A stretch of 64,000 bases of DNA from Exiguobacterium sp. Helios. Its GTDB lineage: Bacteria; Bacillota; Bacilli; Exiguobacteriales; Exiguobacteriaceae. A program made the translations under genes and the position numbers. Location: contig NZ_CP053557.1 in assembly GCF_014524545.1 (NCBI RefSeq), forward strand, positions 1,513,501 through 1,577,500, given 5' to 3'. Positions 42,350 through 60,426 of the stretch are shown here, piece by piece. How positions within the stretch are numbered: the stretch's first letter is position 1; every line of letters starts with the position of its first letter. The notes under the pieces are model-generated. The model saw only the letters and a list, made by a program, of their open reading frames with translations. It made no database searches and was not told the origin of the DNA.

Positions 42350-44143
42350 TTAATCGATATATGCCGCCCCGATGACTCCTGCATGACCCTCCAGCGTCGC
42401 GAGACGAATGTCGATAGTTGATCGGAGCGCCGGATAAACCAGTCCGCTGACTGCTTCAAGCAACTCTTCCCAATACAAATCGGCTGATCCGGTAACACCG
42501 CCGCCGATGACGATGACATCTGGATCAATCGTGTGGATGATATTGGCGAGTCCTGTCGCCAGGTGGTTGATGAAACGAGTCCGTTCCTGTGGGTCCTCGA
42601 GTAACAGTTCGATGGACGACGCCCGCTTTTCTAAAGCACGTGATTGAAGAGCTGTGCCGCTGGCTAGTCCTTCAAGCGAACCGGCATTAAGCACAGGATG
42701 AACCGGACCGGATGAATCGATGATCGTATTGCCGATTTCTCCAGCATACCCATGTGCCCCGCGGATGAGTTTTTTCTCATAAACATATCCGCCTCCGATC
42801 CCTGTGCTGACCGTCACGTAATAGACAGAAGAGTACGGTTGACCCGCTCCGAACAATGCTTCGCCGAGTGCTGCGGCATTCGCATCATTCTCAAGCGACA
42901 CCGGGATGTCGAACATCGAGGATAGAGGGGTGACGAGATCGACGTCATCCCAACCCGGCAGATTCGGAGGAGACAGGAGATGGCCGGTCTTGGTATCGAG
43001 CGGACCAGGTGCGGCGATACCGATTGTCGTCAGCTGGAATTCGTCCGAGAACAGTTGAATGGCTTGTTTGATGTGAGAGATAGTTTGTTCCGGACCGGCT
43101 GCCGGACGTGTCGGAAATGACAGCTGTTTGATGATGGTATCTTGATCGACGACGGCGACCCGTGTTTGAGTGCCACCTAAATCGATACCGATCCGGAGCG
43201 GACGAGTTATTTTTAGTGCGGGACCGGTGACGATCAGAAGTCCTGTTCCAGAGACGGTATGCTCGCTGTTGGCGGGTAAGAGGACCGTTGTGCCGACCGA
43301 TAATTTGATACCATTCAATTCGATCGTTCCTTCAATGACCGTAATGATCTGGAACAAAGGGGATGACTCCAAGGTATGTGTCTGGCGGATGGTCCATTCT
43401 TCGACGAAGAAATCAGGTGTCTGCGTCAGTCTTTTGCGGAAGGGAGACAAGAAAACAGGAGATTCCACATAGTGAAAATGCGGGAAACGGATGACACGTC
43501 GGGCTTGCTCGAGATGAAGAGGACGTTTCACTCCTGTCACAGGATCAAGACGATCATAATCATACAGCCGGTATGTCGTATCTGAACTTTGTTGGATTTC
43601 AAGGACGACGCAGCCTTTCGTCAAAGCATGGACCGTTCCGGCCGGGACATAGAAGAAGTCACCTTTTGAGATCGGGACGTGTTTCAGCGATTGGACTAAG
43701 GTTCCCTGGTCGATTGCCGTATCAAACTCGGATGGTGAGGACAGGGAATGACCATAGATGAGCGTGGCATTCTCTGGACAATCGATGATGTACCAACATT
43801 CATTCTTACCGAACGGCTGGTCTTCATAGCGTCTGGCATCTGAATCGGTCGGATGGACTTGGACGGATAAATCCGTCGAGGCATCAATCCACTTCAACAA
43901 AAGCGGGAAGTCGGAGTCCGTCTCCCTTCCGAATATTTCAGGGTGGTTTGACCATAATTCTTCCAGTGTCATGCCTGCCATCGGACCGGAGCGGACGGTC
44001 GTCATACCGTTCGGATGACTGGCGAGCGTCCAGACTTCGCCTGTCCGTTGCTCATCTGAAATGGAAAACCCATACTGTTGAAGCTTCTGACCACCCCATA
44101 TCCGCTCTTTTACGATGGGTTCAAAAAAAATCGGTTTCTGCAT
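42350..44143 (-). CDS. manA: Fused mannose-6-phosphate isomerase and ROK sugar kinase
   Basis: A 597-residue two-enzyme protein. Residues 1-312 are a class I phosphomannose isomerase: zinc ligands Gln95 and His97 in VQVHPTD, Glu115 in KNECWY and His172 in AGTVHAL. Residues 317-597 are a ROK kinase: ATP loop GIDLGGTQT, ENDANAAALGE with the catalytic Asp, GIGGGYVY and GAHGYAGEIGN. The ROK zinc site is lost: CxCGxxGCxE reads HPVLNAGSLE and the following His is Asn472. In Bacillus the same two activities are separate genes, gmuE (ROK fructokinase) and gmuF, in the glucomannan operon. Here the fused gene is divergent from the matching PTS operon. It would pass mannose-6-phosphate or fructose into glycolysis. 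ATG 44143 follows AAGGAGG. Confidence 0.9.
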   Translation of the reverse strand: MQKPIFFEPIVKERIWGGQKLQQYGFSISDEQRTGEVWTLASHPNGMTTVRSGPMAGMTLEELWSNHPEIFGRETDSDFPLLLKWIDASTDLSVQVHPTDSDARRYEDQPFGKNECWYIIDCPENATLIYGHSLSSPSEFDTAIDQGTLVQSLKHVPISKGDFFYVPAGTVHALTKGCVVLEIQQSSDTTYRLYDYDRLDPVTGVKRPLHLEQARRVIRFPHFHYVESPVFLSPFRKRLTQTPDFFVEEWTIRQTHTLESSPLFQIITVIEGTIELNGIKLSVGTTVLLPANSEHTVSGTGLLIVTGPALKITRPLRIGIDLGGTQTRVAVVDQDTIIKQLSFPTRPAAGPEQTISHIKQAIQLFSDEFQLTTIGIAAPGPLDTKTGHLLSPPNLPGWDDVDLVTPLSSMFDIPVSLENDANAAALGEALFGAGQPYSSVYYVTVSTGIGGGYVYEKKLIRGAHGYAGEIGNTIIDSSGPVHPVLNAGSLEGLASGTALQSRALEKRASSIELLLEDPQERTRFINHLATGLANIIHTIDPDVIVIGGGVTGSADLYWEELLEAVSGLVYPALRSTIDIRLATLEGHAGVIGAAYID

Positions 44144-44219: not shown

Positions 44220-44231
44220 AAGTATAGACAT
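44220..44231. promoter_or_regulatory. GntR/HutC-type operator at the gmu promoter
   Basis: Read on the minus strand, ATGTCTATACTT fits the HutC-subfamily consensus NYGTMTAKACNY exactly. It overlaps the -35 element of the PTS operon and lies between the divergent isomerase-kinase and PTS genes. The same motif recurs before the gene for the GntR/UTRA regulator (47787-47798). Confidence 0.65.
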
Positions 44232-44272
44232 GGGTTTGAAAATCCGTATAATCAAATGTGTAAGCGATTTCA
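44225..44272 (+). promoter_or_regulatory. Promoter and cre of the gmu PTS operon
   Basis: TAGACA (44225-44230), 16 bases, TATAAT (44247-44252). TGTAAGCGATTTCA (44259-44272) matches the CcpA consensus at all defined positions and begins at the predicted transcription start, so strong glucose repression is expected. Confidence 0.75.
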
Positions 44273-44291: not shown

Positions 44292-44588
44292 ATGAAAAAA
44301 ATTATGTTGGCGTGCAGCTCGGGAATGTCGACGAGTATCCTGGTATCGAAAATGCAGGAACATGCGAAGGGAATCGGAGAAGAAGCCAAGATTTGGGCAG
44401 TGGGTCAAGATCAGGCATTGAAGGAGATCGACGGTGCTGATGTCATTCTGATCGGACCTCAAATGCGCTTTTTATTATCGAAATTTCAAAAGGCGACAGA
44501 TAAGCCGGTCGAAGTGATCGATATGATGGCATATGGAATGGCTGACGGAAAAGCGGCGTACGAACAAGCCGTAAAATTAATGGGGTGA
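44292..44588 (+). CDS. gmuB: PTS oligosaccharide-specific IIB component
   Basis: A 98-residue cytoplasmic phosphocarrier of the lactose/cellobiose PTS family. The phosphorylated Cys8 lies in MLACSSGMSTS. It passes phosphate from IIA to the incoming sugar held by IIC. ATG 44292 follows AAAGGAGGAAAT. Gene order IIB-IIA-IIC-6-phospho-beta-glycosidase-GntR equals gmuBACDR of Bacillus, which imports oligosaccharides of glucomannan; cellobiose import (celBAC-like) is the alternative. The stop overlaps the ribosome binding region of the IIA gene. Confidence 0.88.
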   Translation: MKKIMLACSSGMSTSILVSKMQEHAKGIGEEAKIWAVGQDQALKEIDGADVILIGPQMRFLLSKFQKATDKPVEVIDMMAYGMADGKAAYEQAVKLMG

Positions 44589-44593
44589 ACAAT

Positions 44594-44923
44594 ATGCCGA
44601 CAAATGAACAGACGATCGAACAAGTAGCGTTCATGATGATTTTGCACAGCGGAAATGCACGAAGCACAATCCGCGAAGCCATCGAAGTATACAAAGAGGG
44701 CACTTTTGAAGAGTTTGATCAATTACTGACCAGTGCACGTTCGCAACTGCAGGAAGCGCACCAGGTTCACTTCAGCCAAGTCCAAAAGGAAGCAAATGGT
44801 GAACCGACGACGTTATCTCTTCTCTTGTTGCATGCAGAAGACCATTTGATGTCGACACAGACGATGCTTGATTTAACCTCAGGGCTCATTGAGCTCATGG
44901 AACATAAGTTTTCTAAAAAATAA
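44594..44923 (+). CDS. gmuA: PTS oligosaccharide-specific IIA component
   Basis: A 109-residue helical protein of the lactose/cellobiose IIA family. The active site is SLLLLHAEDHLMS with phosphorylated His80 and metal-binding Asp83. It receives phosphate from HPr and hands it to IIB. ATG 44594 is used because GGGGTG ends seven bases upstream; the GTG at 44585 overlaps the IIB stop. It is the second gene of the PTS operon, 15 bases before the IIC start. Confidence 0.9.
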   Translation: MPTNEQTIEQVAFMMILHSGNARSTIREAIEVYKEGTFEEFDQLLTSARSQLQEAHQVHFSQVQKEANGEPTTLSLLLLHAEDHLMSTQTMLDLTSGLIELMEHKFSKK

Positions 44924-44938
44924 TAAGGAGTGTTTGAG

Positions 44939-46276
44939 ATGACTGAGAATAGTAAGTGGTTCGACCTGTTGAGTCGTTTCCTGATGCCGATGGCGGCATT
45001 TTTGAATAACAGTCGTTACCTGCAAACGTTACGTGATGCGTTCATGCTTGCTTTTCCGATTACGATGTTCGGTTCGTTGATCGTCGTCGTCGCCAATCTG
45101 CCGTTTCTTGATAAGTTCATGTCTCCCGGCGTACTCGATGCCTTCAAGACGTCACTCGGAAATGCACCGTCCGCGACGATGGGAATCATGTCATTGTTTG
45201 TGGTGTTTGGAATTGGCTATTATCTTTCTAAAAGTTACGAAGTTGAAGCCGTATTCGGTGGTGTCATCGCTTTAGTCTCGTTCTTATTACTTACTCCGTT
45301 TTTTGTTTCAGTTGAAAATGTCACAGGTCCGGTCGGAAACGTCATTCCACTCGACCGTTTAGGTGCGAAAGGCATGTTCCTTGCCATGATCACCGGATTC
45401 TTGTCAGGAGAAATCTACCGCTTCGTCGTCCAAAAGAACTGGACGATCAAAATGCCGGCCGGCGTACCGACCGCGGTCGCCAAATCGTTTTCGGCCCTCG
45501 TTCCAGCCTTGTTGACCCTCACGATTTTCCTCGGGATCAACATTGCAGTCACTTCTATTTTGAACACGAACTTACATGACCTTATCTTTGATCTCGTTCA
45601 AAAGCCGCTCGTCAATCTAGGAAATGGACTCGTCCCGACCTTGATCGCGATTTTCTTTGTCCAGCTGTTTTGGTTTTTCGGTCTGCATGGTCAGGTCATC
45701 GTCAACTCGGTGATGGACCCGATTTGGAACACGCTGTCTCTCGAAAACCTGAACGCCTACACATCGAACGGAGAAATTCCGAACATCATCAGCAAACAGT
45801 TTATCGAGATCTATACCGTCGGGATCGGCGGATCAGGTTCGACATTGGCTGTTGTCGTCGCCATCCTGTTGTTCATGCGCTCCAAACAATTGAAACAAAT
45901 CGGGAAGCTGTCGATTGGACCGGGTGTCTTCAACGTCAATGAACCGATGATTTTCGGACTCCCGATCGTCATGAATCCACTCATCATGATTCCGTGGATC
46001 GTCGCACCGCTGATTACTGTCACCGTGACGTACTTCGCCATGTCATCCGGTCTCGTTCCTCCTCCGACCGGTGTCGCCGTTCCGTGGACCGTTCCGATGT
46101 TCATCAGTGGAATGATGGCGACGAATTCCCTTGCCGGCGGGTTATTACAGCTCGTCAACTTCGCCATCATCATGGCCGTATGGTTCCCGTTCCTCGTTTT
46201 CATCGATCGTCTGAACCTGAAGAAGGAAAGAGAAGAAGAAAAGGCTGCACAAGAGAAGGACCAACAAATCGGTTAA
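44939..46276 (+). CDS. gmuC: PTS oligosaccharide-specific IIC component
   Basis: A 445-residue membrane permease of the cellobiose/lichenan PTS family with about ten helices. Family blocks are RDAFMLAFPITMFGS near the N-terminus, FFGLHGQVIVNSVMDPIW in the middle, and GPGVFNVNEPMIFGLPIVMNP, which carries the conserved sugar-binding glutamate. It imports and phosphorylates disaccharides with IIA and IIB. ATG 44939 follows AAGGAG at 44924-44930 region spacing. The charged tail (KKEREEEKAAQEKDQQ) faces the cytoplasm. Confidence 0.9.
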   Translation: MTENSKWFDLLSRFLMPMAAFLNNSRYLQTLRDAFMLAFPITMFGSLIVVVANLPFLDKFMSPGVLDAFKTSLGNAPSATMGIMSLFVVFGIGYYLSKSYEVEAVFGGVIALVSFLLLTPFFVSVENVTGPVGNVIPLDRLGAKGMFLAMITGFLSGEIYRFVVQKNWTIKMPAGVPTAVAKSFSALVPALLTLTIFLGINIAVTSILNTNLHDLIFDLVQKPLVNLGNGLVPTLIAIFFVQLFWFFGLHGQVIVNSVMDPIWNTLSLENLNAYTSNGEIPNIISKQFIEIYTVGIGGSGSTLAVVVAILLFMRSKQLKQIGKLSIGPGVFNVNEPMIFGLPIVMNPLIMIPWIVAPLITVTVTYFAMSSGLVPPPTGVAVPWTVPMFISGMMATNSLAGGLLQLVNFAIIMAVWFPFLVFIDRLNLKKEREEEKAAQEKDQQIG

Positions 46277-46305: not shown

Positions 46306-47727
46306 ATGAATCAGATTGAAAATATGACCGGACGGACAAAAAAATATACCTTCCCGACTGACTTTTGGTGGGGAACGGCTGCTTCCGCAACGCAAATGGA
46401 AGGTGCCGCTGATGAAGCGGGGAAAGGCCCGAACATTTGGGACTATTGGTACGAACAGGAACCGAATCGCTTCTTTGACGGCGTTGGGGCCACGGTAGCT
46501 TCGAACTTCTATCATCAGTATGAGGAAGACATCGCCCTGATGAAGGAACTGGGACACAACTCTTTCCGTATGTCGATCTCCTGGTCCCGGCTGTTCCCGA
46601 CAGGTGAAGGGGACATCAATCCGTTGGCCGTGGATTTCTATAATCGTGTCATCGATGAGCTGATCGAGGCAGGGATTGAACCTTTCGTCAATCTCTATCA
46701 TTTCGATATGCCGCTTGCGTTACAGCAGAAAGGTGGCTGGGAGAGCCGGGACGTCGTCCTGCATTTTGTCGACTATGCTAAGAAATGCTTTGATTTGTTC
46801 GGGGATCGCGTGGCGAAATGGTTCACACATAACGAACCGATCGTCCCGGTCGAGGGTGGATATTTATATGATTTCCACTATCCGAACGTGGTGGACTTCA
46901 AAAGAGCCGTTCAGGTCGCGTATCATTCGATCCTGTCAAGTGCGCTGGCGATCAAGGCGTATAAGGATTCAGATCAGGCGGGCAAGATTGGTATCATTCT
47001 GAACCTGACGCCTTCTTATCCGAGAAGTCAGAATGAGGCGGACGTCCAAGCTGCTCATTTGGCGGACATCCTGTTCAACCGCTCCTTCCTGGATCCGTCC
47101 GTCTTAGGCAGCTTCCCGCAGGAATTGGTCAAACTGTTAGAAGAACAGGACGCTTTACCGGTCATGGAAGAAACGGACCGGCAGATGATTGCGACGTATA
47201 CGGTCGACCTGCTCGGTATCAACTATTACCAGCCAAGACGCATCAAAGTGAAGGAGCATCTTCCGAATCCGGCGGCTCCATTCATGCCGGAGCATCTGTT
47301 CGATTATTATGAGATGCCGGGACGTAAAATGAACCGTCACCGGGGATGGGAAATCTACGAGAAGGGTGTCTATGACATCTTGACGAACTTGCGTGAGAAC
47401 TATGGAAACATCGAGTGCTTCATTTCGGAGAACGGCATGGGCGTCGAGGGGGAAGAACGGTATCGTGATGCGGACGGAAGCATTCAGGATGATTACCGGA
47501 TTGATTTCATCGCGGAGCATCTCAAGTGGGTGCATCTTGCCTTACAGGAAGGTTCGAACGTCAAAGGGTATCATCTCTGGACGTTCATGGACAACTGGTC
47601 ATGGAGCAACGCCTATAAAAACCGCTATGGTTTTGTCGGGGTAGATCTGTCCAGTCAGACGAGAACGGTCAAAAAGAGTGGGCATTGGTTCAAGCATTTG
47701 ATTGAAGAGAACGGATTCGTAAAATGA
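46306..47727 (+). CDS. gmuD: 6-phospho-beta-glycosidase (GH1)
   Basis: A 473-residue cytoplasmic enzyme that splits the phosphorylated disaccharides delivered by the PTS. Acid/base Glu177 lies in FTHNEPIVP and nucleophile Glu375 in FISENGMG. The phosphate-site pattern WSWSNAYKNRYG (Ser434, Lys438, Tyr441) marks the 6-phospho subgroup rather than simple beta-glucosidases. In Bacillus GmuD accepts both phospho-glucosides and phospho-mannosides. ATG 46306 has only a weak site (GGGATG); the open frame upstream to 45994 is antisense-like shadow of the IIC gene. It is followed by a terminator. Confidence 0.92.
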   Translation: MNQIENMTGRTKKYTFPTDFWWGTAASATQMEGAADEAGKGPNIWDYWYEQEPNRFFDGVGATVASNFYHQYEEDIALMKELGHNSFRMSISWSRLFPTGEGDINPLAVDFYNRVIDELIEAGIEPFVNLYHFDMPLALQQKGGWESRDVVLHFVDYAKKCFDLFGDRVAKWFTHNEPIVPVEGGYLYDFHYPNVVDFKRAVQVAYHSILSSALAIKAYKDSDQAGKIGIILNLTPSYPRSQNEADVQAAHLADILFNRSFLDPSVLGSFPQELVKLLEEQDALPVMEETDRQMIATYTVDLLGINYYQPRRIKVKEHLPNPAAPFMPEHLFDYYEMPGRKMNRHRGWEIYEKGVYDILTNLRENYGNIECFISENGMGVEGEERYRDADGSIQDDYRIDFIAEHLKWVHLALQEGSNVKGYHLWTFMDNWSWSNAYKNRYGFVGVDLSSQTRTVKKSGHWFKHLIEENGFVK

Positions 47728-47786: not shown

Positions 47787-47798
47787 ATGTCTATACAT
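47787..47798. promoter_or_regulatory. GntR/HutC-type operator before the regulator gene
   Basis: ATGTCTATACAT fits NYGTMTAKACNY exactly and shares ATGTCTATAC with the operator at the PTS promoter. It lies 12 bases before the regulator's start codon, indicating autoregulation. Confidence 0.65.
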
Positions 47799-47809
47799 GG
47801 GGTGGAATC

Positions 47810-48538
47810 ATGTCTACAAAAAAGAAACCAAAATATGAAAAAATCGCAGATGAGTTACGCAAACGGATTCTTAACGGAGGTTATGATGTCGAAGAGGCGA
47901 TGCCGGACGAGATTCAATTAGCCGAGGAATTCGAGGTCAGCCGGATGACGATGAAACGCGCCTTGGAGATCTTAGTACTCGAAGGCATCATCTACCGGCA
48001 ACGAGGACAAGGAACGTTCATCCTGCCGTCGAGCTTTTCGCAGGGAAGAATCAATGTATTGAACAAAGAATCGCAGGGCTTGACGAAGCTGCTTGGCGAA
48101 CGGGCAGTCAAGAGTGAGGTCTTGCAGTTCGAGGTCCGTTTTCCGGAAGCGGAAGTTGCACGTCACCTGATGATCGAAAAGACGGATCCGGTCTACGAAA
48201 TTCGACGTGTCCGTTACGTAGAAGAAGAACCATATGTCATTGAACATACGTTCATGCCATCTTCCCTGATCACCGGATTGACGAAAGAAATTCTGGATAC
48301 TTCAATTTACCGGTACATTCAGGAAGAGCTTGGGTATACGATCACCAGCTCACACAAGATGATTCGCGCGGACAAACCGAATCAGTGGGACCGTGAATAC
48401 CTCGGGAACGAAGAAACTGATCCTGTGATTGAAGTCGAACAAGTGGTGTTCCTCGGAAACGGAAAACCGTTCGAGTATTCATTTTCGAGGCACCGGTATG
48501 ACAAGTTTGTCTTTACGTCTGTTCACATCGGTCGATAA
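47810..48538 (+). CDS. gmuR: GntR-family (HutC/UTRA) regulator of the gmu locus
   Basis: A 242-residue repressor. The winged helix DNA-binding domain (about 8-75) reads YEKIADELRKRILNGGY, then EFEVSRMTMKRALEILVLEG and the wing QRGQGTFI. A UTRA effector domain follows (RVRYVEEEPYVIEHTFMP). It is related to GmuR/YdhQ, BglR and TreR-type regulators that sense phosphorylated sugars. ATG 47810 follows GGGGTGG; the frame upstream to 47777 lacks homology. Two matching operators, one here and one at the PTS promoter, support the local target. Confidence 0.9.
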   Translation: MSTKKKPKYEKIADELRKRILNGGYDVEEAMPDEIQLAEEFEVSRMTMKRALEILVLEGIIYRQRGQGTFILPSSFSQGRINVLNKESQGLTKLLGERAVKSEVLQFEVRFPEAEVARHLMIEKTDPVYEIRRVRYVEEEPYVIEHTFMPSSLITGLTKEILDTSIYRYIQEELGYTITSSHKMIRADKPNQWDREYLGNEETDPVIEVEQVVFLGNGKPFEYSFSRHRYDKFVFTSVHIGR

Positions 48539-51281: not shown

Positions 51282-51326
51282 TTAGTTTTTTTGAATCCGA
51301 AAAATTAATCAATGGAGGAATTGACG

Positions 51327-52676
51327 ATGAATCGTAAATCAAAAAAGATGTTTGCGTTAACGATGACTGCCCTCATGACAACTTCTATCGCACTTGCTGG
51401 TTGTTCAGGAGACGGAAAGAGCGCCGATGGAAAAGTGGAACTGACATTCATGTTCCGTGGAAATCCTGAAGAATTAAAAGCCTATAAAGCGACAGTTAAG
51501 CGATTTGAAGAAGCACATAAAGATGTCAAAGTAACGATGGTTCAGACGGCCCCCGATCAATATGATACAAAATTAAAATCTGCTATTGCGGGACGCAAAG
51601 TACCTGACGTCTTCTTCTATAATCCAGCGCAAGTCAAAGCGTATGTGAACTCGGGTGTGCTATTAGATATTACAAAAGACGTCGAAGGTTCAAAAGACAT
51701 CAAATTAGAAGACATCTGGCAAAAAGGTGTTGATAAGTATCGTTATGATGGAAAAGCCCTTGGTAAAGGTGCGATTTACGGGCTACCGAAGGACTTAGGA
51801 CCTTTTGCACTTGGTTATAACAAGACGATGTTTGAGAAAGAGAATGTTCCACTTCCGGATAAAGATAAACCCTATACATGGGATGAATTTGTGAAAGTAG
51901 CTAAAAAATTGACGAAAGATACGAATGGCGACGGAAAGATGGATCAGTATGGTACTGGTTTTAACGCGAACTGGGCACTACAACCGTTCGTTTGGAGCAA
52001 CGGTGCAGATTGGATCAATGAAGAGGGAACAAAGGTGACGATCGACGACCCGAAATTTATCGAAGCCTTGCAATTCTTCGTCGACCAACAAGTGAAACAT
52101 AAAATTACGCCTTCTATCGGTGAGACGCAAACACTGGATACGTATCAACGTTGGATGAAGGGGCAACTCGCGTTCTTCCCAGTCGGGCCGTGGGATATGG
52201 CAGCGTTCAAAGATCAATTGAAATTTGAGTATGATCTACTTCCTTGGCCAGCGGGATCAACGGGTAAGCCATCTGGTTGGGTCGGATCGCTCGGTATCGG
52301 TGTCGGATCTACGACGAAACACCAAAAAGAAGCGGCTGAATTAGCCATGTACTTATCGGCTGATCAGGAAGGACAACAGGAATTAGTCGATGCACAAGTC
52401 CAGTTGCCAAATAGCATGGAGATTGCAAAAGACTGGGTGGAGGACACATCCATCCAACCAAAGAACAAAGAAGAGTTCTTAGACTTGATCAATGATTACG
52501 GTCGTGGTTTCCCAGCCGAGAAAACGTACACAGCAGAATGGTACGACGAGTTCTTTAAAAACATCCAACCTGTCCTTGATGGTAAAACATCAGTCGAAGA
52601 CTATGTAAAGAAAGAGCAACCAAAAATGCAGAAGTTGCTGGATGCTGCCATCGCACAAGAGAAACAGGCGAACTGA
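51327..52676 (+). CDS. araN: Arabinose-oligosaccharide-binding lipoprotein
   Basis: A 449-residue extracellular solute-binding protein, family 1. The signal peptide ends in IALAGCSG, with lipid-modified Cys26. The mature part has the usual order: [56 protein letters not shown] and a [16 protein letters not shown] turn. It captures arabinose oligomers for AraPQ. ATG 51327 follows GGAGG; an ATG at 51312 overlaps that site. It heads the araNPQ transport unit and is divergent from araR. Confidence 0.93.
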
Positions 52677-52689
52677 TCAAAGGTTTTAG

Positions 52690-52721
52690 AAAGGGTGGTG
52701 TTTATCACCACCTGACCCTTT
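52690..52721 (+). terminator. Intercistronic hairpin between araN and araP
   Basis: AAAGGGT-GGTG pairs with CACC-(ACCTG)-ACCCTTT. There is no long U-tract, so it more likely protects the araN mRNA end or causes partial termination, making binding protein exceed permease. Confidence 0.55.
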
Positions 52722-52744
52722 GACGTGGAAAGGATGGAAGAACG

Positions 52745-53641
52745 ATGAAAACAAAAACGATTTCTAAGTTATATCGAACCGAGCAACGTTATGCCTACTT
52801 GTTTGTTGCAGCGCCAGTCATTGGATTCTTTCTTTTCGCATTATTGCCATTGATGTACTCCTTCTATGGCGCATTCACCAATTGGAATGGACTTGGACAA
52901 ATGAAATTCATTGGTCTAGAGAACTTCATTAATTTGTTCCAAGATGAGTATTTCTATAAGTCGATGTATAACACGCTCTTCATGATGCTTGGTATTCCAA
53001 TCGGGATCGTACTCGCTCTCATGCTCGCTTTAGCACTGAATCGCGGAATTTTTGGCACGAATACCTTCCGAGTCATTTACTACATCCCCGTCATTTCCTC
53101 TATTGCTGCTGTTTCGATTTTATGGCAGTGGGCGTATAACGGAGATTACGGTCTAGTAAATCAGTTCTTAGATCTGATTGGTATTGACGGTCCGAATTGG
53201 CTACAAAATACAAATACGGTCAAACCAGCATTGATTGTCATGGCCATCTGGAAAGGGTTAGGGTATACGATGCTCCTTTATTTGGCGGCATTGCAAAGTG
53301 TACCTAAATCCTACTATGAAGCAGCGAAATTAGATGGTGCGAATGCGTGGCACTGTTTTTGGTACATCACTCTCCCGATGGTCAAGCCTGTGACATTCTT
53401 CATTATCGTGACAAACATTATCGGTGGTGCTCAAATCTTTACGGAAATTAACGTCATGACGCCAACGGGTGGACCGGAGTATTCTTCTGCTTCTGCTGTC
53501 TTTTATATTTGGCAAAAGTCGTTCGGGAACTTCCAGTTGGGATATGCTTCGGCGATGGCACTTGTGCTAGGTCTCTTTATCTTCATCATCACGCTACTTC
53601 AATTCCGGATGAACGAAAAATCATCATTCGACATCGATTAA
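52745..53641 (+). CDS. araP: Arabinose-oligosaccharide ABC permease
   Basis: A 298-residue MalF-like inner membrane subunit with six helices. The first helix is YLFVAAPVIGFFLFALLPLMYSF and the cytoplasmic EAA loop is YYEAAKLDGANAWHCFWYITLPM. It forms the channel with AraQ; the ATPase is not in the window and, as in Bacillus (MsmX), is probably a shared protein encoded elsewhere. ATG 52745 follows AAAGGATGG. The araQ gene begins 30 bases after its stop. Confidence 0.93.
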   Translation: MKTKTISKLYRTEQRYAYLFVAAPVIGFFLFALLPLMYSFYGAFTNWNGLGQMKFIGLENFINLFQDEYFYKSMYNTLFMMLGIPIGIVLALMLALALNRGIFGTNTFRVIYYIPVISSIAAVSILWQWAYNGDYGLVNQFLDLIGIDGPNWLQNTNTVKPALIVMAIWKGLGYTMLLYLAALQSVPKSYYEAAKLDGANAWHCFWYITLPMVKPVTFFIIVTNIIGGAQIFTEINVMTPTGGPEYSSASAVFYIWQKSFGNFQLGYASAMALVLGLFIFIITLLQFRMNEKSSFDID

Positions 53642-53671
53642 GCAACTAGCACCTTGGAAAGGAGAATAACC

Positions 53672-54556
53672 ATGCAGTTAGCTCTTACGCGTAAAAAAGA
53701 AAACGTGGAGAAGATGTCAGTAAAGAAAAAGGATCGGATTACGGATGTCTTTGTCTTTGTCTTCTTAACGATGGGAGCGGTCGTCATGATCGCACCGTTA
53801 CTTTGGATGGTATCGACATCCTTGAAGTCGAAAGAAGAGGTATTTTCGCTTCCACCGGTATGGATTCCGACTGACATATCGTTTAATAAGTATTTTGAGA
53901 TTTGGAATATGGGTCCACTCTTATCAGGGATATCAAACAGTTTAATTGTTGCGTTGTCTGTCACGATCGTAGGAACATTTACTTCAAGCTTAGCAGCGTT
54001 CGCTTTTGCTAAATTGAATTTTAGAGGGAAAAATAAAATCTTTCTACTTTTGTTCGCCTCAGTCATGATTCCATACCCGGTCCTGATGATTCCACAGTTT
54101 ATGATGTTCTCGAATATTGGATGGGTCGATACATTACTGCCGCTGATTGTACCTGGATTGTTTGGAAACATCTTCATGATTTTCTTCTTGCGTCAATTCT
54201 TGAACAGCATTCCGAACTCAATTATCGAAGCAGCTAAAATCGATGGTTGTTCGTATTTCCAAATCTTCTATAAAATCATCTTTCCACTGATCAAGCCCGC
54301 TGTAGCGGCACAATTGATTCTTTGGTTTATGGCCATTTGGAATGATTATCTAGGTCCAATTCTATATCTGAATTCACCTGAGAAACAAACGCTTCAACTG
54401 GTTATTGCAAATTTCAATGCATCTTATGCAATTCAAAGTGATTATCCATTAATCATGGCTGCATCCGTTGTGGCATTACTCCCGATGTTAATCGTCTTCA
54501 TGATATTTCAAAAACAGATCATCGAGTCGATTGCCATTTCTGGTGTGAAGGGCTGA
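53672..54556 (+). CDS. araQ: Arabinose-oligosaccharide ABC permease
   Basis: A 294-residue MalG-like subunit with six helices; the EAA loop reads IIEAAKIDGCSYFQIFYKIIFPL. It pairs with AraP. ATG 53672 follows AAAGGAGAATAACC; a TTG at 53654 in frame precedes that site and is rejected. The N-terminal tail is highly basic (RKKENVEKMSVKKKDR), as expected for a cytoplasmic end. A hairpin then a GH43 gene follow. Confidence 0.93.
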   Translation: MQLALTRKKENVEKMSVKKKDRITDVFVFVFLTMGAVVMIAPLLWMVSTSLKSKEEVFSLPPVWIPTDISFNKYFEIWNMGPLLSGISNSLIVALSVTIVGTFTSSLAAFAFAKLNFRGKNKIFLLLFASVMIPYPVLMIPQFMMFSNIGWVDTLLPLIVPGLFGNIFMIFFLRQFLNSIPNSIIEAAKIDGCSYFQIFYKIIFPLIKPAVAAQLILWFMAIWNDYLGPILYLNSPEKQTLQLVIANFNASYAIQSDYPLIMAASVVALLPMLIVFMIFQKQIIESIAISGVKG

Positions 54557-54572
54557 GGTGTATAGAGAGAAG

Positions 54573-54605
54573 AACACCCGTCTTGATTAAAGGCGGGTGC
54601 TTTTG
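54573..54605 (+). terminator. Partial terminator between araQ and the GH43 gene
   Basis: CACCCGTC pairs with GGCGGGTG across TTGATTAAA and is followed by CTTTTG. The short U-tract and the close downstream gene suggest attenuated read-through. Confidence 0.65.
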
Positions 54606-54624
54606 ATTGAAGGAGGAAACATGT

Positions 54625-56025
54625 ATGAGAAAAATCATGATAGGAATAACAATGTTAATCCTTGTGATTGGCAGTTTTTTGTTTTGGTGGTCTACGAGTG
54701 CATCTATCAAAGATTTGGCACTACCAAAAGCACCTTTTGAAAAACAGATTTCAGATGTACGACCTGAAATACTCCATCAAGAGAACAAATGGACGACCAA
54801 CTTTACGCATGATGGTGCCATTCTAAAGGAAGCGGATACCTATTACGTCTTTTCAACAGATTATATGGTAGGAAGTCCACCAAAACCTGGGATTCAAATA
54901 CGAAAATCAAAAGACCTTATTCATTGGCAATTCGCGGGTCGTGTATTTGATCAAGTAACAGAAGAAGCCTTTGATTGGACAGGTGGAAACACATTCTGGG
55001 CTCCAGCCATTACGAAAATAGCAGGGAAGTTTTACTTGTACTATTCTGTCTCCAAAGTCGGGAGTCGTACTTCTTATATTGGATTAGCGACCGCTGCGCA
55101 CATTGATGGACCATGGGAAGATAAAGGAGTCGTCGTAGCATCGAAAGACGGAGATGGAAAGACGGTGAACGCCATTGATCCACACGTTCTTCAAGATGAG
55201 CACGGTAAGTGGTGGATGACGTACGGTTCGTACTTTGGTGGTATTTTCTTGACGGAGATTGATCCGAAGGACGGTAAGCTCATGAAGGAATCCTACGAAG
55301 GTATGTTGCTCGCCAAAAGAAAAGATATGACGATGGGAATCGAAGGGCCGGAAATTCTCTACAATGCTAAAACAGGTTATTACTATTTGATGGTTTCATA
55401 TGGATGGTTAGAAGATACATATAACGTTCGAATCGGCCGTTCGAAATCGATAAAGGGTCCTTATGTGGACTCCCGTGGGCGTGATTTACGTGATACATCA
55501 GATGAATCGTTTGATACTGGCGTGAAGATTATAGGTGGTTATCAATTTAGAGGAGATGATGGATACGTCGGCACAGGCCACGCTGCATTCTTAAAGGATG
55601 GGAAAGATACGTTCATCATTCACCAAGCGCGGCCTAATGAAGATATTTACTGGTCCCAATTGCAAGTTCGAAAAGTGTACTGGACAAAAGACGGTTGGCC
55701 CGTCGTCTCACCTGAACGCTATGCGGGAGAATCTGAAATTAAAATTAAAGACGCGCATATGGTCGGTGAATGGGACATCCTTACATTTCCCCGCTTTGAT
55801 GATGGACAACAGAAATCGGAAAAAGTGACGTTGAAAAAGAATGGAAAGTTACTAAATGAAAAGGGATCATGGCGTCTGAAAAACCATATGCTTACACTTC
55901 GTGTAGGGCAAGAAACGTATGATATGCAAATGGGTGCAGCATGGGATTGGGAGAACTGGAAGTCGACGATAATTATGACCGGTATGAGTAAGGATGGAAC
56001 TACTATTTGGGCAAAACGCTTATGA
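54625..56025 (+). CDS. Membrane-anchored endo-1,5-alpha-L-arabinanase (GH43)
   Basis: A 466-residue exported hydrolase of family GH43, closest in layout to B. subtilis Abn2. A single N-terminal hydrophobic helix (IMIGITMLILVIGSFLFWW) without a clear cleavage site suggests anchoring. The five-bladed propeller carries the catalytic trio: Asp63 in THDGAIL, Asp185 in NAIDPHVL and Glu240 in GIEGPEIL. A C-terminal beta domain (about 365-466) is the small extra domain of this subgroup. It would cut arabinan outside the cell into oligomers for AraNPQ. ATG 54625 follows AAGGAGG. Confidence 0.88.
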   Translation: MRKIMIGITMLILVIGSFLFWWSTSASIKDLALPKAPFEKQISDVRPEILHQENKWTTNFTHDGAILKEADTYYVFSTDYMVGSPPKPGIQIRKSKDLIHWQFAGRVFDQVTEEAFDWTGGNTFWAPAITKIAGKFYLYYSVSKVGSRTSYIGLATAAHIDGPWEDKGVVVASKDGDGKTVNAIDPHVLQDEHGKWWMTYGSYFGGIFLTEIDPKDGKLMKESYEGMLLAKRKDMTMGIEGPEILYNAKTGYYYLMVSYGWLEDTYNVRIGRSKSIKGPYVDSRGRDLRDTSDESFDTGVKIIGGYQFRGDDGYVGTGHAAFLKDGKDTFIIHQARPNEDIYWSQLQVRKVYWTKDGWPVVSPERYAGESEIKIKDAHMVGEWDILTFPRFDDGQQKSEKVTLKKNGKLLNEKGSWRLKNHMLTLRVGQETYDMQMGAAWDWENWKSTIIMTGMSKDGTTIWAKRL

Positions 56026-56244
56026 AAAATAAGAATGCAATGCTGAATAAGAGAAGCATATATTGAAACGAATACCTGATGTAAGAAGGGTCAACTAATC
56101 AAATGCGGATTCAAAAGCAACCTATCTTACTGTGTGCTTTGGTTTGAATTCTAATCTAGTCTCTGAATAATTAGACAAAAACAAATGGTGTTCATCATTA
56201 AATTAGTCATCTGAATGAACTAAAACTATTGAACGCAATTCAAC

Positions 56245-56258
56245 ATGTACGTACCAAT
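56245..56258. promoter_or_regulatory. AraR operator upstream of araB (distal)
   Basis: ATGTACGTACCAAT is an AraR box with one flank mismatch. Its centre is about 138 bases from the proximal box at 56383-56396. Confidence 0.72.
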
Positions 56259-56361
56259 AGTGATAAAATAGACATGAAAGAGTCTTGAAACAACCTTAAA
56301 AGTCTTTTTGAACAAAAAAATAGCCTTATTTACGAAAAAATAGTTGATTAATTGGAAATAA

Positions 56362-56396
56362 TTGATACAATCATAGTGTAAGTTATACGTACAAAT
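56362..56396 (+). promoter_or_regulatory. Probable araB promoter with overlapping AraR operator
   Basis: TTGATA (56362-56367), 16 bases, TATACG (56384-56389). The AraR box TTATACGTACAAAT (56383-56396) covers the -10, so bound AraR would exclude RNA polymerase. Confidence 0.65.
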
Positions 56397-56486
56397 TTTA
56401 GTTTTTATTTTATTTTTCTACACATTTCTATCAATTGTCCGGATGAAAAAAAGGAGTGCCCACACACTTTATTTTTTATTCCGAAA

Positions 56487-56500
56487 TGTAAGCGTATTCT
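56487..56500. promoter_or_regulatory. Weak cre in the araB leader
   Basis: TGTAAGCGTATTCT fits the CcpA consensus at 12 of 14 positions, 22 bases before the araB start codon. Confidence 0.4.
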
Positions 56501-56521
56501 TTTTGGAAGTAGGGTGATGAA

Positions 56522-58213
56522 ATGTCTAAGTATACAATTGGAATTGACTATGGGACACAATCAGGTAGAGCGGTCTTGATCGACGTAGAAACAGGTTGCG
56601 AAGTAGCGACTGCTGTCAAAACGTATACACATGGTGTCATGGATAAATTTTTACCAGATGGAAAAACGCGTTTGGAACATGATTGGGCACTCCAGCATCC
56701 GCGAGATTACCTTGAAGTGTTAGAAGTCACCATACCATCCGTTGTAAAAAAAGCAGGTGTCCTGGCGGATCAAGTGATTGGTCTTGGTATTGATTTTACG
56801 GCATGTACGATTTTACCGATTGATAAAGACTTGAATCCGTTATGTTTCCGTGATGAACATCAACAAAACCCACATAGCTATGTAAAGTTGTGGAAGCATC
56901 ATGCAGCCCAAGATGAAGCAGATGCTTTGAACCGGATTGCTAGTGAACGTGGAGAAAGCTTCTTGCAACGTTACGGTGGGAAAATTTCATCAGAGTGGAT
57001 GATACCGAAAGTCTGGCAAATCTTAAATGAGGCACCGACTATTTATGCGGAAGCACATGAAATTTTAGAAGCGACAGACTGGGTGGTCTCTCAGTTAACA
57101 GGAAAAGTTGTACGTAATAGTTGTACGGCTGGATATAAAGCAATGTGGCATAAACAAGAAGGCTATCCTTCAAAATCATTCTTTAAAGCGCTGGATCCCC
57201 GACTAGAGAACGTGGTGGAAGAGAAACTCTCCAACGACATCTCGCCTATCGGAGCAAAAGCAGGTGAACTAACGAAAGCTTTCGCCGCTCGGATTGGACT
57301 TCTTCCAGGAACAGCCGTTGCGGTAGGGAATGTAGATGCGCATGTAGCCGTACCAGCCGTTGGGATTACCGAACCGGGTAAATTGTTGATGGTGATGGGC
57401 ACATCCACCTGTCATATCTTGCTTGGTGAAGACGAACAAGTCGTACCGGGTATGTGTGGAATCGTAGAAGATGGCGTTCTACCCGGATTAATGGGCTATG
57501 AGGCGGGTCAGTCCTGTGTCGGAGATCATTTTGAATGGTTCACTGAAAATTGTGTGCCAAGCAACTATATAGAAGAAGCAGCTCTAAAAGGAATGAGTAT
57601 CCATCAACTCCTGACGGACAAGGCGGCAGCACAGCGTGTCGGAGAGAACGGTCTGATTGCTCTAGATTGGTGGAATGGGAACCGCTCTACGCTTGTCGAT
57701 ACGAATCTGACAGGAATACTGCTTGGAGCCACCTTGCTCACAAAAACGGAGGATATGTATCGAGCGCTGATTGAAGCAACTGCCTATGGAACACGAACCA
57801 TCGTCGAAGCGTTTCGGACAAGTGGCGTTCCGGTACACGAAGTCTATGCAGCAGGTGGAATCGCAGAGAAGAACACACTGATGATGCAAATTTACGCGGA
57901 CGTATTGAATATGGAAATCAAAATTTCAGCCTCTTCTCAAACGCCAGCGTTAGGATCTGCAATGTTCGGTGCCGTCGCAGCAGGAGCAGAGCGAGGAGGA
58001 TATGCCACGATCACAGAAGCAGCGACGAAAATGGGACGCGTGAAGGACAAGACCTATGTTCCGATTCCAGAAAATGTCGAGGTGTACGATGCCTTATTCG
58101 CTGAGTATACGAAACTGTATGATTATTTCGGTCGTGGAGAGAACGATGTGATGAAGCGTTTGAAAAAAATTAAAGCTGAAGCGTCACGTCAGAAGGGGGA
58201 ACCCGTATGGTAA
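56522..58213 (+). CDS. araB: Ribulokinase
   Basis: A 563-residue FGGY-family kinase that phosphorylates L-ribulose to L-ribulose-5-phosphate. The first ATPase lobe begins [31 protein letters not shown] and the second-lobe [12 protein letters not shown] and [11 protein letters not shown] are conserved AraB blocks. Length is that of the family. ATG 56522 follows AGGGTGATGA. It starts the araBDA unit behind a regulatory region of about 500 bases. Its last seven bases overlap the araD start, so the two are translationally coupled. Confidence 0.96.
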
Positions 58214-58905
58214 GTCGTCAATTGAAAGAAGAAGTACTAAAAGCCAATCTAGCTTTACCTCAACATGATTTGGTTACGTTCACGTGGGGCAACGTCAGTG
58301 GAATCGATCGCAATACAGGTTTGGTTGTCATCAAACCGAGCGGGGTGCCCTATGAGCAATTGACGATAGAAGATTTAGTCGTCGTTGATTTAGAAGGAAA
58401 TATTGTAGAAGGTGAACTGCGTCCATCCTCAGATACACCGACTCATCTTGCATTGTATCGTGCTCTTCCAGAGATTGGGGGCATTGTTCACACGCACTCA
58501 CCGTGGGCGACGAGCTGGGCCCAAGCAAAACGATCGATTCCTGCTTTTGGGACGACGCATGCTGATTACTTCTATGGAGAAATTCCTTGTACGCGGGAGT
58601 TATCAGATGAAGAAATCGAGGCAGCTTATGAGTTAGAGACGGGACATGTCATTATTGAAACATTGAGCGAACTCCACTTAGAAGCCGTTGCTGTACCTGG
58701 TGTGCTTGTCGCCAATCATGCTCCCTTCTGTTGGGGAAAGGATGCGGATGAAGCAGTGCATAATGCCGTCGTACTTGAAGAAGTAGCAAAGATGGGAATC
58801 CATGCCTTGAACTTGAATCCGAATTTGACACCAATCAAACAAAGCATATTAGACAAACACTATCTGCGGAAGCATGGAGCGAACGCATATTACGGTCAGA
58901 AATAA
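58207..58905 (+). CDS. araD: L-ribulose-5-phosphate 4-epimerase
   Basis: A 232-residue class II aldolase-fold enzyme that converts L-ribulose-5-phosphate to D-xylulose-5-phosphate for the pentose phosphate pathway. Visible blocks are [22 protein letters not shown], the metal-binding [14 protein letters not shown] and [18 protein letters not shown], with the third histidine in [13 protein letters not shown] 58207 follows AAGGGGG inside araB and overlaps its stop. araA follows after 33 bases. Confidence 0.96.
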
Positions 58906-58938
58906 TACCTGCTCATAGCTAGATTAGGGGGACTTTAG

Positions 58939-60426
58939 ATGTTGACAGCAAATACGCATGAATTTTGGTTTATAACAGGAAGCCAGATGCTTTATGGAAA
59001 GGATGTTCTGCGCCAAGTCGAAACGCATTCAAAAGAAATGGTTTCAGGGTTAGACGGAGCCGACGTCTTTCGTGATCGGATTGTCTTTAAAGGAGTCGTC
59101 AAAAATGCCGAGGAAATTCGGCAGATGATGCTCCAAGCCAATGCAGATGATACGTGTGCTGGTGTCATTACATGGATGCATACCTTCTCTCCATCCAAAA
59201 TGTGGATCAGTGGGATGCGCGTTCTACAAAAACCATTGCTTCATTTTGGTACACAATTCAACCGTGACATTCCATGGGATGCCATCGATATGGATTTCAT
59301 GAACCTCAATCAGTCGGCACACGGGGATCGAGAACATGGCTTCATCACAAGCCGGATGAATGTGAAACGCAAAGTGCTAGTCGGGCATTGGGAAGATACA
59401 GGTACTCGCCAAAAGATGGCGTCTTGGATGAGTGTCGCCCATGCTTTAGCGGAAAGTAAAGTCTTGAAGGTAGCGCGTTTTGGTGACAACATGCGTAATG
59501 TTGCCGTGACGGAAGGCGATAAAGTTGAGGCACAGATTCGGCTTGGCTGGACGGTTGACGGTTATGGCGTTGGGGATCTCGTCACATACATGGATGCAGT
59601 GACGGAGACAGCGTTGGATGAGCTGATGGAAGAATATCAAACACGATATGAATTGACGAATAAAGGAATGAAAGAAGAAGCATTCCTCGCCTCAGTTCGC
59701 TACCAAGGACGCATCGAACTCGGGATGAAAGCTTTCTTGGAAGCGGGAGAATACACAGCTTTCACTACAACTTTCGAAGATTTACATGGAATCAAGCAAT
59801 TACCCGGTCTAGCTGTTCAACGTTTAATGGAACAAGGCTACGGATTTGCGGGAGAAGGGGACTGGAAGACAGCGGCTTTAGTGCGTCTTATGAAGATCAT
59901 GGCCAGCAACGAGCGCACCTCCTTCATGGAAGATTATACGTACCACTTTGAGCCTGGAAACGAGATGGTCCTCGGTGCACATATGCTCGAGATCTGTCCG
60001 ACGATTGCTGTAGACAAGCCACGAATCGAGGTACATCCGCTCGGCATCGGAGATCGGGAGGCACCGGCGCGAATGGTATTCGAAGGACAGAACGGTAAGG
60101 CACTTAATGCCAGTCTGATTGATCTAGGACATCGCTTCCGCCTTCTAGTCAACACGGTGGAAGGAATCCAACCTGATGAAGAAATGTCGAACTTACCAGT
60201 TGCACGTGTTCTTTGGAAAACACAACCGTCGATGGCTCAGGCCGTTGAAAACTGGATTCAAGCTGGAGGCGCTCATCATACTTGTTACTCTTATGAAGTC
60301 ACAACAGACCAACTGCGCGACTTTGCGGAACTTCTCAATGTCGAAATTGCTGTCATCGACGAACAAACGGAGACAGTCAGGTTCAATAATGAATTACGCT
60401 GGAACGAGCTGTATTATCGACCATAA
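58939..60426 (+). CDS. araA: L-arabinose isomerase
   Basis: A 495-residue manganese-dependent isomerase converting L-arabinose to L-ribulose. It begins [14 protein letters not shown], the family hallmark; THSPSKMW-like [12 protein letters not shown] and [26 protein letters not shown] with a catalytic glutamate are present, as is FMEDYTYHF and [12 protein letters not shown] 58939 follows TAGGGGG. Order B-D-A differs from the A-B-D order of B. subtilis. A hairpin follows the stop. Confidence 0.96.

What the first reader, a model, noticed from the sequence alone, without database searches (positions are those of the whole stretch)
42350..44143. Fusion of phosphomannose isomerase and ROK kinase with the ROK zinc site lost
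One 597-residue protein joins what are separate genes (gmuF and gmuE) in Bacillus. The kinase half keeps the ATP and catalytic motifs but the structural CxCGxxGCxE reads HPVLNAGSLE and the next histidine is Asn472. Fusion may channel mannose-6-phosphate or fructose, and the missing zinc site may reflect altered specificity or fold support by the isomerase half.
Basis: partly seen in the sequence, partly recalled or inferred. Interest (0 to 1): 0.68.

Follow-up and report, generated by a model that had tools for sequence, protein, structure and literature searches.

The report
Fused mannose kinase–isomerase enzyme
Some Exiguobacterium and a few other bacteria carry one long protein that probably does two neighbouring steps of mannose breakdown; it is a real and inherited gene fusion, but its missing zinc site is shared with unfused relatives and so is not a result of the fusion.

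Summary
Window 42350-44143 (minus strand) is one 597-residue frame: type I phosphomannose isomerase, a linker of about ten residues, then a ROK sugar kinase whose four zinc ligands read Asn472, His482, Val484, Ser489. It is not a sequencing artefact: 18 genomes in three families carry the unbroken fusion, both halves are under purifying selection, and the catalytic residues checked are invariant in 18 of 18. Both half-trees fit one fusion event. The kinase half is not GmuE: GmuE/YdhR-type kinases form a separate branch. The zinc loss is not tied to fusion: six unfused close relatives also lack the site, and other unfused ROK proteins lack it too. The fusion is divergent from a PTS IIB-IIA-IIC, GH1, GntR cassette with a conserved operator-like motif, and the layout recurs in the other families. 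[quoted passage not shown] Substrate and channelling are untested. I found no description of this architecture in the searches named. New variant of a known kind; modest interest.

The parts
42350..44143 (-). PMI-ROK fusion gene, 597 aa
   Evidence: same architecture in 18 genomes
43226..44143 (-). Type I phosphomannose isomerase half (residues 1-306)
   Evidence: TIGR00218 176.8 bits over cut-off 116.2; B. subtilis PMI 1qwr 250 bits; model matches 1qwr, TM 0.91 by target length
43196..43225 (-). Linker of about 10 residues (307-316)
   Evidence: one search prints the junction in 13 copies
42353..43195 (-). ROK kinase half (residues 317-597)
   Evidence: PF00480 199.3 bits; closest solved 3vov, ROK hexokinase/glucokinase
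42671..42739 (-). Residues 469-491: ExGN ... HPVLNAGSLE, the zinc site lost
   Evidence: alignment, counts
44220..44231 (+). AAGTATAGACAT, operator-like motif in the divergent gap, overlapping a -35
   Evidence: only exact copy in the 3.15 Mb genome; seen in the gap of 14 of 14 intact fusion loci printed; one exact copy in the fetched stretch of each of the 18 fusion genomes
44225..44252 (+). Promoter-like TAGACA-16-TATAAT towards the PTS genes
   Evidence: 11 of 12 matches; consensus match only
44259..44272 (+). cre-like site TGTAAGCGATTTCA (CcpA consensus recalled)
   Evidence: read in the sequences; not scored, function not tested
44292..44588 (+). PTS IIB, lactose/cellobiose family
   Evidence: TIGR00853, below cut-off
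44585..44923 (+). PTS IIA, lactose/cellobiose family
   Evidence: TIGR00823, below cut-off
44930..46276 (+). PTS IIC, lactose/cellobiose family
   Evidence: TIGR00410, TIGR00359, above cut-off
46306..47727 (+). GH1 glycosidase, probably a 6-phospho-beta-glycosidase
   Evidence: PF00232; nearest solved 4b3k (deposited as beta-glucosidase) and near-identical 5foo (6-phospho-beta-D glycosidase); best NCBIfam profile is plain GH1 beta-glucosidase, below its cut-off
47787..47798 (-). Second, one-mismatch copy of the motif (ATGTATAGACAT) before the regulator
   Evidence: found in 8 of 8 Exiguobacterium-family loci scanned, 0 of 3 others
47810..48538 (+). GntR-family regulator with UTRA domain
   Evidence: PF00392, PF07702

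Best explanation
A bifunctional catabolic enzyme of a GntR-linked beta-mannoside PTS pathway. Inferred steps: the PTS imports and 6-phosphorylates a beta-disaccharide with mannose at its non-reducing end (mannobiose or mannosyl-glucose); the GH1 enzyme splits it into mannose-6-phosphate and a free hexose; the ROK half phosphorylates the free mannose (and/or glucose) with ATP; the isomerase half converts mannose-6-phosphate from both sources into fructose-6-phosphate. Shown by computation: the fusion, its conservation, a pattern that fits one origin, selection on both halves, and the shared cassette and motif. The kinase belongs to a zinc-less ROK branch with an ExGN ... NxG(S/A)xE signature that was most likely zinc-less before it was fused.
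For: Both halves intact with the checked catalytic residues invariant in 18 of 18 and dN/dS under 0.25 in all pairs where it was defined. Same divergent cassette (PTS, GH1, GntR) with the fusion in Exiguobacterium, on an E. acetylicum plasmid, and in three genomes of two other families (GntR after the fusion in G216 and G224). Motif AAGTATAGACAT in the divergent gap of 14 of 14 loci printed. The fusion is the only PMI-half match in its genome at E 1e-10. Unfused ExGN or ExGQ kinases sit in related settings: L165 PTS EIIC, GH1, ROK with a PMI 4.4 kb on; L084 GH130 mannooligosaccharide phosphorylase, DUF1861, PMI, ROK; L168 GH130, DUF1861, ROK; L085 a GlcNAc-2-epimerase-family gene and LacI upstream. 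B. subtilis gmu operon logic as told in PMC11669640 (passages). Trees.
Against: No activity data. The substrate of the PTS and GH1 is inferred; the families are named for cellobiose or lactose, and the best GH1 profile is a plain beta-glucosidase, below cut-off. No GH26 mannanase match in the own genome, but the same search did not ring in its B. subtilis control, which should carry GmuG, so it says little. Asn472 replaces a residue that contacts the sugar in NagK (PMC10031466, passages), so sugar preference could be unusual. In GH130/epimerase settings the freed sugar would be glucose rather than mannose (pathway recalled). Both AlphaFold models are poor in residues 446-492, so the loop is unresolved.
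Confidence: 0.62

Rival explanations
1. The kinase half is mainly a glucokinase and the fusion only links two enzymes of mixed gluco-mannoside breakdown, so the two reactions are parallel, not consecutive.
For: Best curated kinase profile is ROK_glcA glucokinase, 146 bits, below its cut-off of 260; nearest solved relatives are glucokinases or a ROK hexokinase; GH130 and epimerase-family settings of unfused relatives would release glucose (pathway recalled).
Against: The own genome already has a separate ROK glucokinase over the curated cut-off (L001, 331.9 vs 260.35 bits); joining a glucokinase to PMI gives no shared intermediate.
Confidence: 0.25
2. The kinase half is a structural or regulatory ROK domain without kinase activity, the zinc loss marking decay; only the isomerase works.
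For: Lost zinc ligands; cysteine mutation inactivated B. subtilis glucokinase (as reported in PMC5458393, passage).
Against: D321, D420, the glycine loop, E469 and E491 invariant in 18 of 18; the ROK half has the lower dN/dS in each of the 11 pairs where both halves were defined; F. nucleatum NanK keeps the active-site layout without zinc (PMC5458393, passages).
Confidence: 0.06
3. Zinc loss is a consequence of fusion, the isomerase half taking over fold support.
For: All 18 fused proteins are zinc-less.
Against: Six unfused neighbours on the tree and one more on a viral-collection contig (L193) are zinc-less too.
Confidence: 0.04

Closest known systems
Bacillus subtilis gmu operon (GmuE fructokinase YdhR, GmuF PMI)
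   Same: PTS IIB/IIA/IIC, GH1, GntR, ROK kinase and PMI in one glucomannan pathway (PMC11669640, passages; that GmuE is YdhR is recalled)
   Different: Two genes there; its kinase type forms another, zinc-type branch; here the fusion is divergent from the PTS genes
Type I phosphomannose isomerase (B. subtilis 1qwr)
   Same: 43% identity over the half, metal and catalytic residues kept (roles recalled)
   Different: Here it carries a C-terminal kinase
Zinc-less ROK kinases (F. nucleatum NanK 5nck, L. monocytogenes 4htl, S. aureus NanK)
   Same: No CxCGxxGCxE zinc site, other ROK motifs kept (PMC5458393, passages)
   Different: Here the ExGH histidine is Asn; F. nucleatum NanK keeps it and L. 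monocytogenes has Tyr; different sugar context
Human GNE (UDP-GlcNAc 2-epimerase / ManNAc kinase)
   Same: A sugar epimerase joined to a ROK kinase for neighbouring steps (molecule name; the rest recalled)
   Different: N-terminal enzyme of another family (recalled); there the kinase acts second, here it would act first

Membership tests
Class I mannose-6-phosphate isomerase (TIGR00218 / PF20511) | Profile score over curated cut-off | tested here: met
   176.8 vs 116.2 bits; PF20511 57 vs 22
Class I mannose-6-phosphate isomerase (TIGR00218 / PF20511) | Metal and catalytic residues (Gln, His, Glu, His, Arg; roles recalled) | tested here: met
   invariant in 18 of 18
ROK family | PF00480, DxGGT and catalytic Asp | tested here: met
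   199.3 vs 22.9 bits; D321, D420
ROK family | ExGH motif | tested here: not met
   E469-x-G471-N472 in 18 of 18
ROK family | CxCGxxGCx(E/D) zinc motif (definition from PMC5458393) | tested here: not met
   HPVLNAGSLE; final Glu kept. Published ROK members also lack it
GmuE/YdhR fructokinase | Groups with YdhR-like kinases | tested here: not met
   four YdhR-like rows separate at 100/100 (one of the four, L092, compared with YdhR structures)
gmu-type pathway | PTS + GH1 + GntR + PMI + ROK | tested here: met
gmu-type pathway | GH26 mannanase (gmuG type) | tested here: inconclusive
   0 matches in own genome, but the B. subtilis control did not ring either
Bifunctional mannokinase/PMI | Both activities in one chain | not testable with these tools
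   needs assay

The most novel reading that the evidence does not exclude
The short linker fixes the two active sites so that mannose-6-phosphate made by a zinc-independent ExGN mannokinase is passed directly to the isomerase: a self-contained mannose-to-fructose-6-phosphate machine that spread with its PTS cassette, partly on plasmids, among Bacilli.
Probability: 0.15. Interest if true: 0.5.

Novelty: new variant of a known kind. Interest (0 to 1): 0.34.

Why it matters
It corrects annotation (two plasmid copies are named only as a PMI catalytic subunit), suggests a natural two-step enzyme for turning mannose into fructose-6-phosphate, and marks an ExGN, zinc-less ROK branch found in several beta-mannoside settings, useful for testing what the ROK zinc site is for.

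Tried and rejected
Artefact joining two genes: rejected (18 unbroken copies). Paenibacillus cellulosilyticus hit H3 as a further fusion: rejected, two adjacent genes in ROK-PMI order. Five rows with stops inside (G381, G250, G280, G027, G065) are neighbouring PMI and ROK genes, not fusions. Fructose as substrate: no support found. Structure of the interface: two AlphaFold jobs (and 81/89). The full-length model has a good PMI half but most of the kinase half is poor (under pLDDT 50: 379-394, 420-492, 494-497, 534-556, 569-573, 576-597); the kinase alone is poor at 446-492. No interface measure is given, so nothing is claimed about channelling geometry or how the loop is held. Five viral-collection scans for more kinase rows gave one locus, L193.

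Trees: the quick 109-row ROK tree needed 3 changes for 'fused': the long-branched zinc-less rows L143, L145, L153 fell inside and L025 (a truncated fusion copy) was coded as unfused. It needed 6 zinc changes, with labels that wrongly coded L050 and L051 (CPVC...GC) as zinc-less. For the 72-row careful tree (built, shown) I dropped those three rows, 28 loci that were long-branched, repetitive or off-topic (zinc-less L052, L144, L156, L174 among them), and the second kinases of L038, L040, L041, L044, also zinc-less; so its 3 zinc changes are a lower count for that subset. There the fused rows are one clade (96/95), but the clade joining them with the six unfused zinc-less rows has only 72/8 (96 by SH-aLRT alone in the 109-row tree, where L143, L145 and L153 also fall in it), so 'zinc lost before fusion' rests on parsimony and the shared signature, not on strong support. 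PMI tree: the free quick tree put one long row (L079) among the fused; held together the likelihood was 14.45 higher, AU p 0.773. One search then failed at display and one search failed for a missing file.

The zinc counts come from loci I held: 65 of the 80 unfused rows listed, the 18 fused, and loci of other calls. Ligands were read at aligned columns.

Literature: searches (open PMC library only) listed no description of a PMI-ROK fusion that I recognised; of these papers I opened passages of one, PMC7478625, which names a 'bifunctional glucosidase/phosphomannose isomerase' in Roseburia, not a ROK fusion. The others were seen as listings only.

Full report
What is there. Window 42350-44143 on the minus strand is one open frame of 597 residues. 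Residues 1-306 are a type I phosphomannose isomerase (TIGR00218 176.8 bits against a cut-off of 116.2; B. subtilis 1qwr 250 bits). Residues 317-597 are a ROK domain (PF00480 199.3 bits), with best solved relatives a Thermus ROK hexokinase/glucokinase and other glucokinases. The junction is about ten residues.

It is a real, inherited fusion. Of 398 genomes of the class, 18 carry one unbroken frame of 598-639 aa covering both halves: 8 of 19 in the same genus, 7 of 19 in the sister genus of the family, and 3 of the other 360. Within the families of those three it is 2 of 10 and 1 of 39. In a draw of 398 genomes of the phylum, 4 had a match at E 1e-75 and only the window's own was a fusion. Named carriers are E. 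indicum, E. profundum and E. chiriqhucha among the loci (fusion seen) and two E. acetylicum plasmids. The catalytic residues checked are invariant in 18 of 18. Nei-Gojobori dN/dS was 0.05-0.13 in each half against same-genus copies where dS was defined, and at most 0.24 in five other pairs.

One fusion. The kinase halves, with the zinc columns left out, form one clade of 19 rows (18 plus a truncated copy) at 96/95. For the isomerase halves, holding the 18 together improved the likelihood. The rows left out and the less clean first trees are told under Tried and rejected.

The kinase half is not GmuE. YdhR-like kinases beside PMI genes (L092, 444 bits to 1xc3 and 3ohr; with L055, L048, L049) form a separate branch at 100/100. 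Pairing of the two enzymes is common: among the unfused ORFs, 12 zinc-type, non-YdhR ROK genes stand directly before a PMI gene, P. cellulosilyticus among them, and 6 ROK genes of several types directly after one. The fusion has the PMI-ROK order.

The zinc loss is not due to the fusion. All 18 fused ORFs have 0 of 4 ligands, but so have 19 unfused ORFs of the 113 distinct ROK ORFs held, leaving out the truncated fusion copy L025 and the partial match L004; three more keep only the histidine. Three of the 19 are weak, distant matches. Six of the unfused ones (L084, L085, L086, L117, L119, L165) lie next to the fusion clade, and five of these six share Asn at position 472. N472, N486, G488 and E491 are invariant in the 14 rows (11 fused, 3 unfused). 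Parsimony needs 3 changes on the 72-row tree, one of them shared by the fused and these six (joint support only 72/8; zinc-less rows were among those dropped). L193 from a viral-collection contig is a further unfused ExGN kinase. That a zinc-less ROK kinase keeps its active-site layout is in print for F. nucleatum NanK, in a paper that also names L. monocytogenes and S. aureus enzymes (PMC5458393, passages). In the zinc-type P. shigelloides NagK the histidine both holds zinc and binds sugar (PMC10031466, passages), so Asn472 may bear on sugar preference.

Surroundings and control. On the other strand lie PTS IIB, IIA, IIC, a GH1 glycosidase and a GntR regulator with a UTRA domain. The GH1 is nearest to 4b3k, deposited as beta-glucosidase, and its near-copy 5foo, deposited as 6-phospho-beta-D-glycosidase; its best NCBIfam profile is plain beta-glucosidase, below cut-off. 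The same divergent layout occurs on the E. acetylicum plasmid, in G075, and in G216 and G224, where GntR follows the fusion instead. The 12-base AAGTATAGACAT occurs once exactly in the genome, in the divergent gap; ten one-mismatch matches in 3.15 Mb are fewer than the reversed control pattern gives (22), and one of them stands before the GntR gene. The motif is in the gap of 14 of 14 intact loci printed, occurs once in the stretch held for each of the 18 fusion genomes, and the second site is in 8 of 8 Exiguobacterium-family loci scanned but 0 of 3 others. By itself a 12-base match with mismatches is not significant in the window (4 found, 3.16 expected); its conservation at one place is the argument. 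It overlaps a -35 element, so part of the conservation may be promoter.

How it works (inferred). As in the gmu operon (PMC11669640, passages), sugars enter by the PTS and are processed by a GH1 enzyme, a kinase and an isomerase. With PMI in the cassette, the phosphorylated product is most likely mannose-6-phosphate. The kinase half would phosphorylate the freed mannose or glucose, and the isomerase half would turn mannose-6-phosphate from both routes into fructose-6-phosphate. Unfused ExGN or ExGQ kinases in EIIC-GH1 (L165) and GH130/DUF1861 settings (L084, L168) support a link to beta-mannosides. The fusion is the only PMI-half match in its genome, so its isomerase half may also serve general mannose metabolism; the genome has a separate ROK glucokinase. 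A GH26 search of the genome found nothing, but its B. subtilis control did not ring, so it is inconclusive. Channelling is not shown.

Verdict. Observation confirmed; interpretation partly supported. A new variant of known enzymes rather than a new kind.

Noticed in passing
L025 (G016:C1:1480451-1481146) and L008 (G016:C2:18680-20470): One genome has an intact fusion on a 128 kb contig and a truncated chromosomal copy that lost the isomerase half and the kinase N-terminus.
   Followed up: partly
L062:7778-8674, L063 and L064:7709-8668: In three sister-genus loci a second zinc-less ROK gene (GEFGYW or GEYGYW) follows the fusion; L038's copy scores best, but far below cut-off (143 vs 550), on beta-glucoside kinase BglK.
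   Followed up: partly
L193: Unfused ExGN ROK kinase on an IMG/VR contig beside what looks like an RluA-type pseudouridine synthase (recalled, not searched); the contig may be bacterial.
   Followed up: no
NZ_CP081879.1 and NZ_CP075898.1: The fusion is annotated only as type I PMI catalytic subunit; the kinase half is unnamed.
   Followed up: no
window 51312-60426: A solute-binding protein and what look like ABC permeases, followed by an FGGY kinase, a class II aldolase-family gene and L-arabinose isomerase, so probably an arabinose cluster.
   Followed up: partly
L084:7803-8780 and L168:3232-4191: DUF1861 protein (PF08950) next to GH130 genes and ExGN/ExGQ kinases in two genomes; DUF1861 may belong to beta-mannoside use.
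   Followed up: partly
control: The PF02156 (GH26) search did not ring in the B. subtilis control genome, although B. subtilis is known (recalled) to have GmuG; the search may be insensitive or the control incomplete.
   Followed up: no
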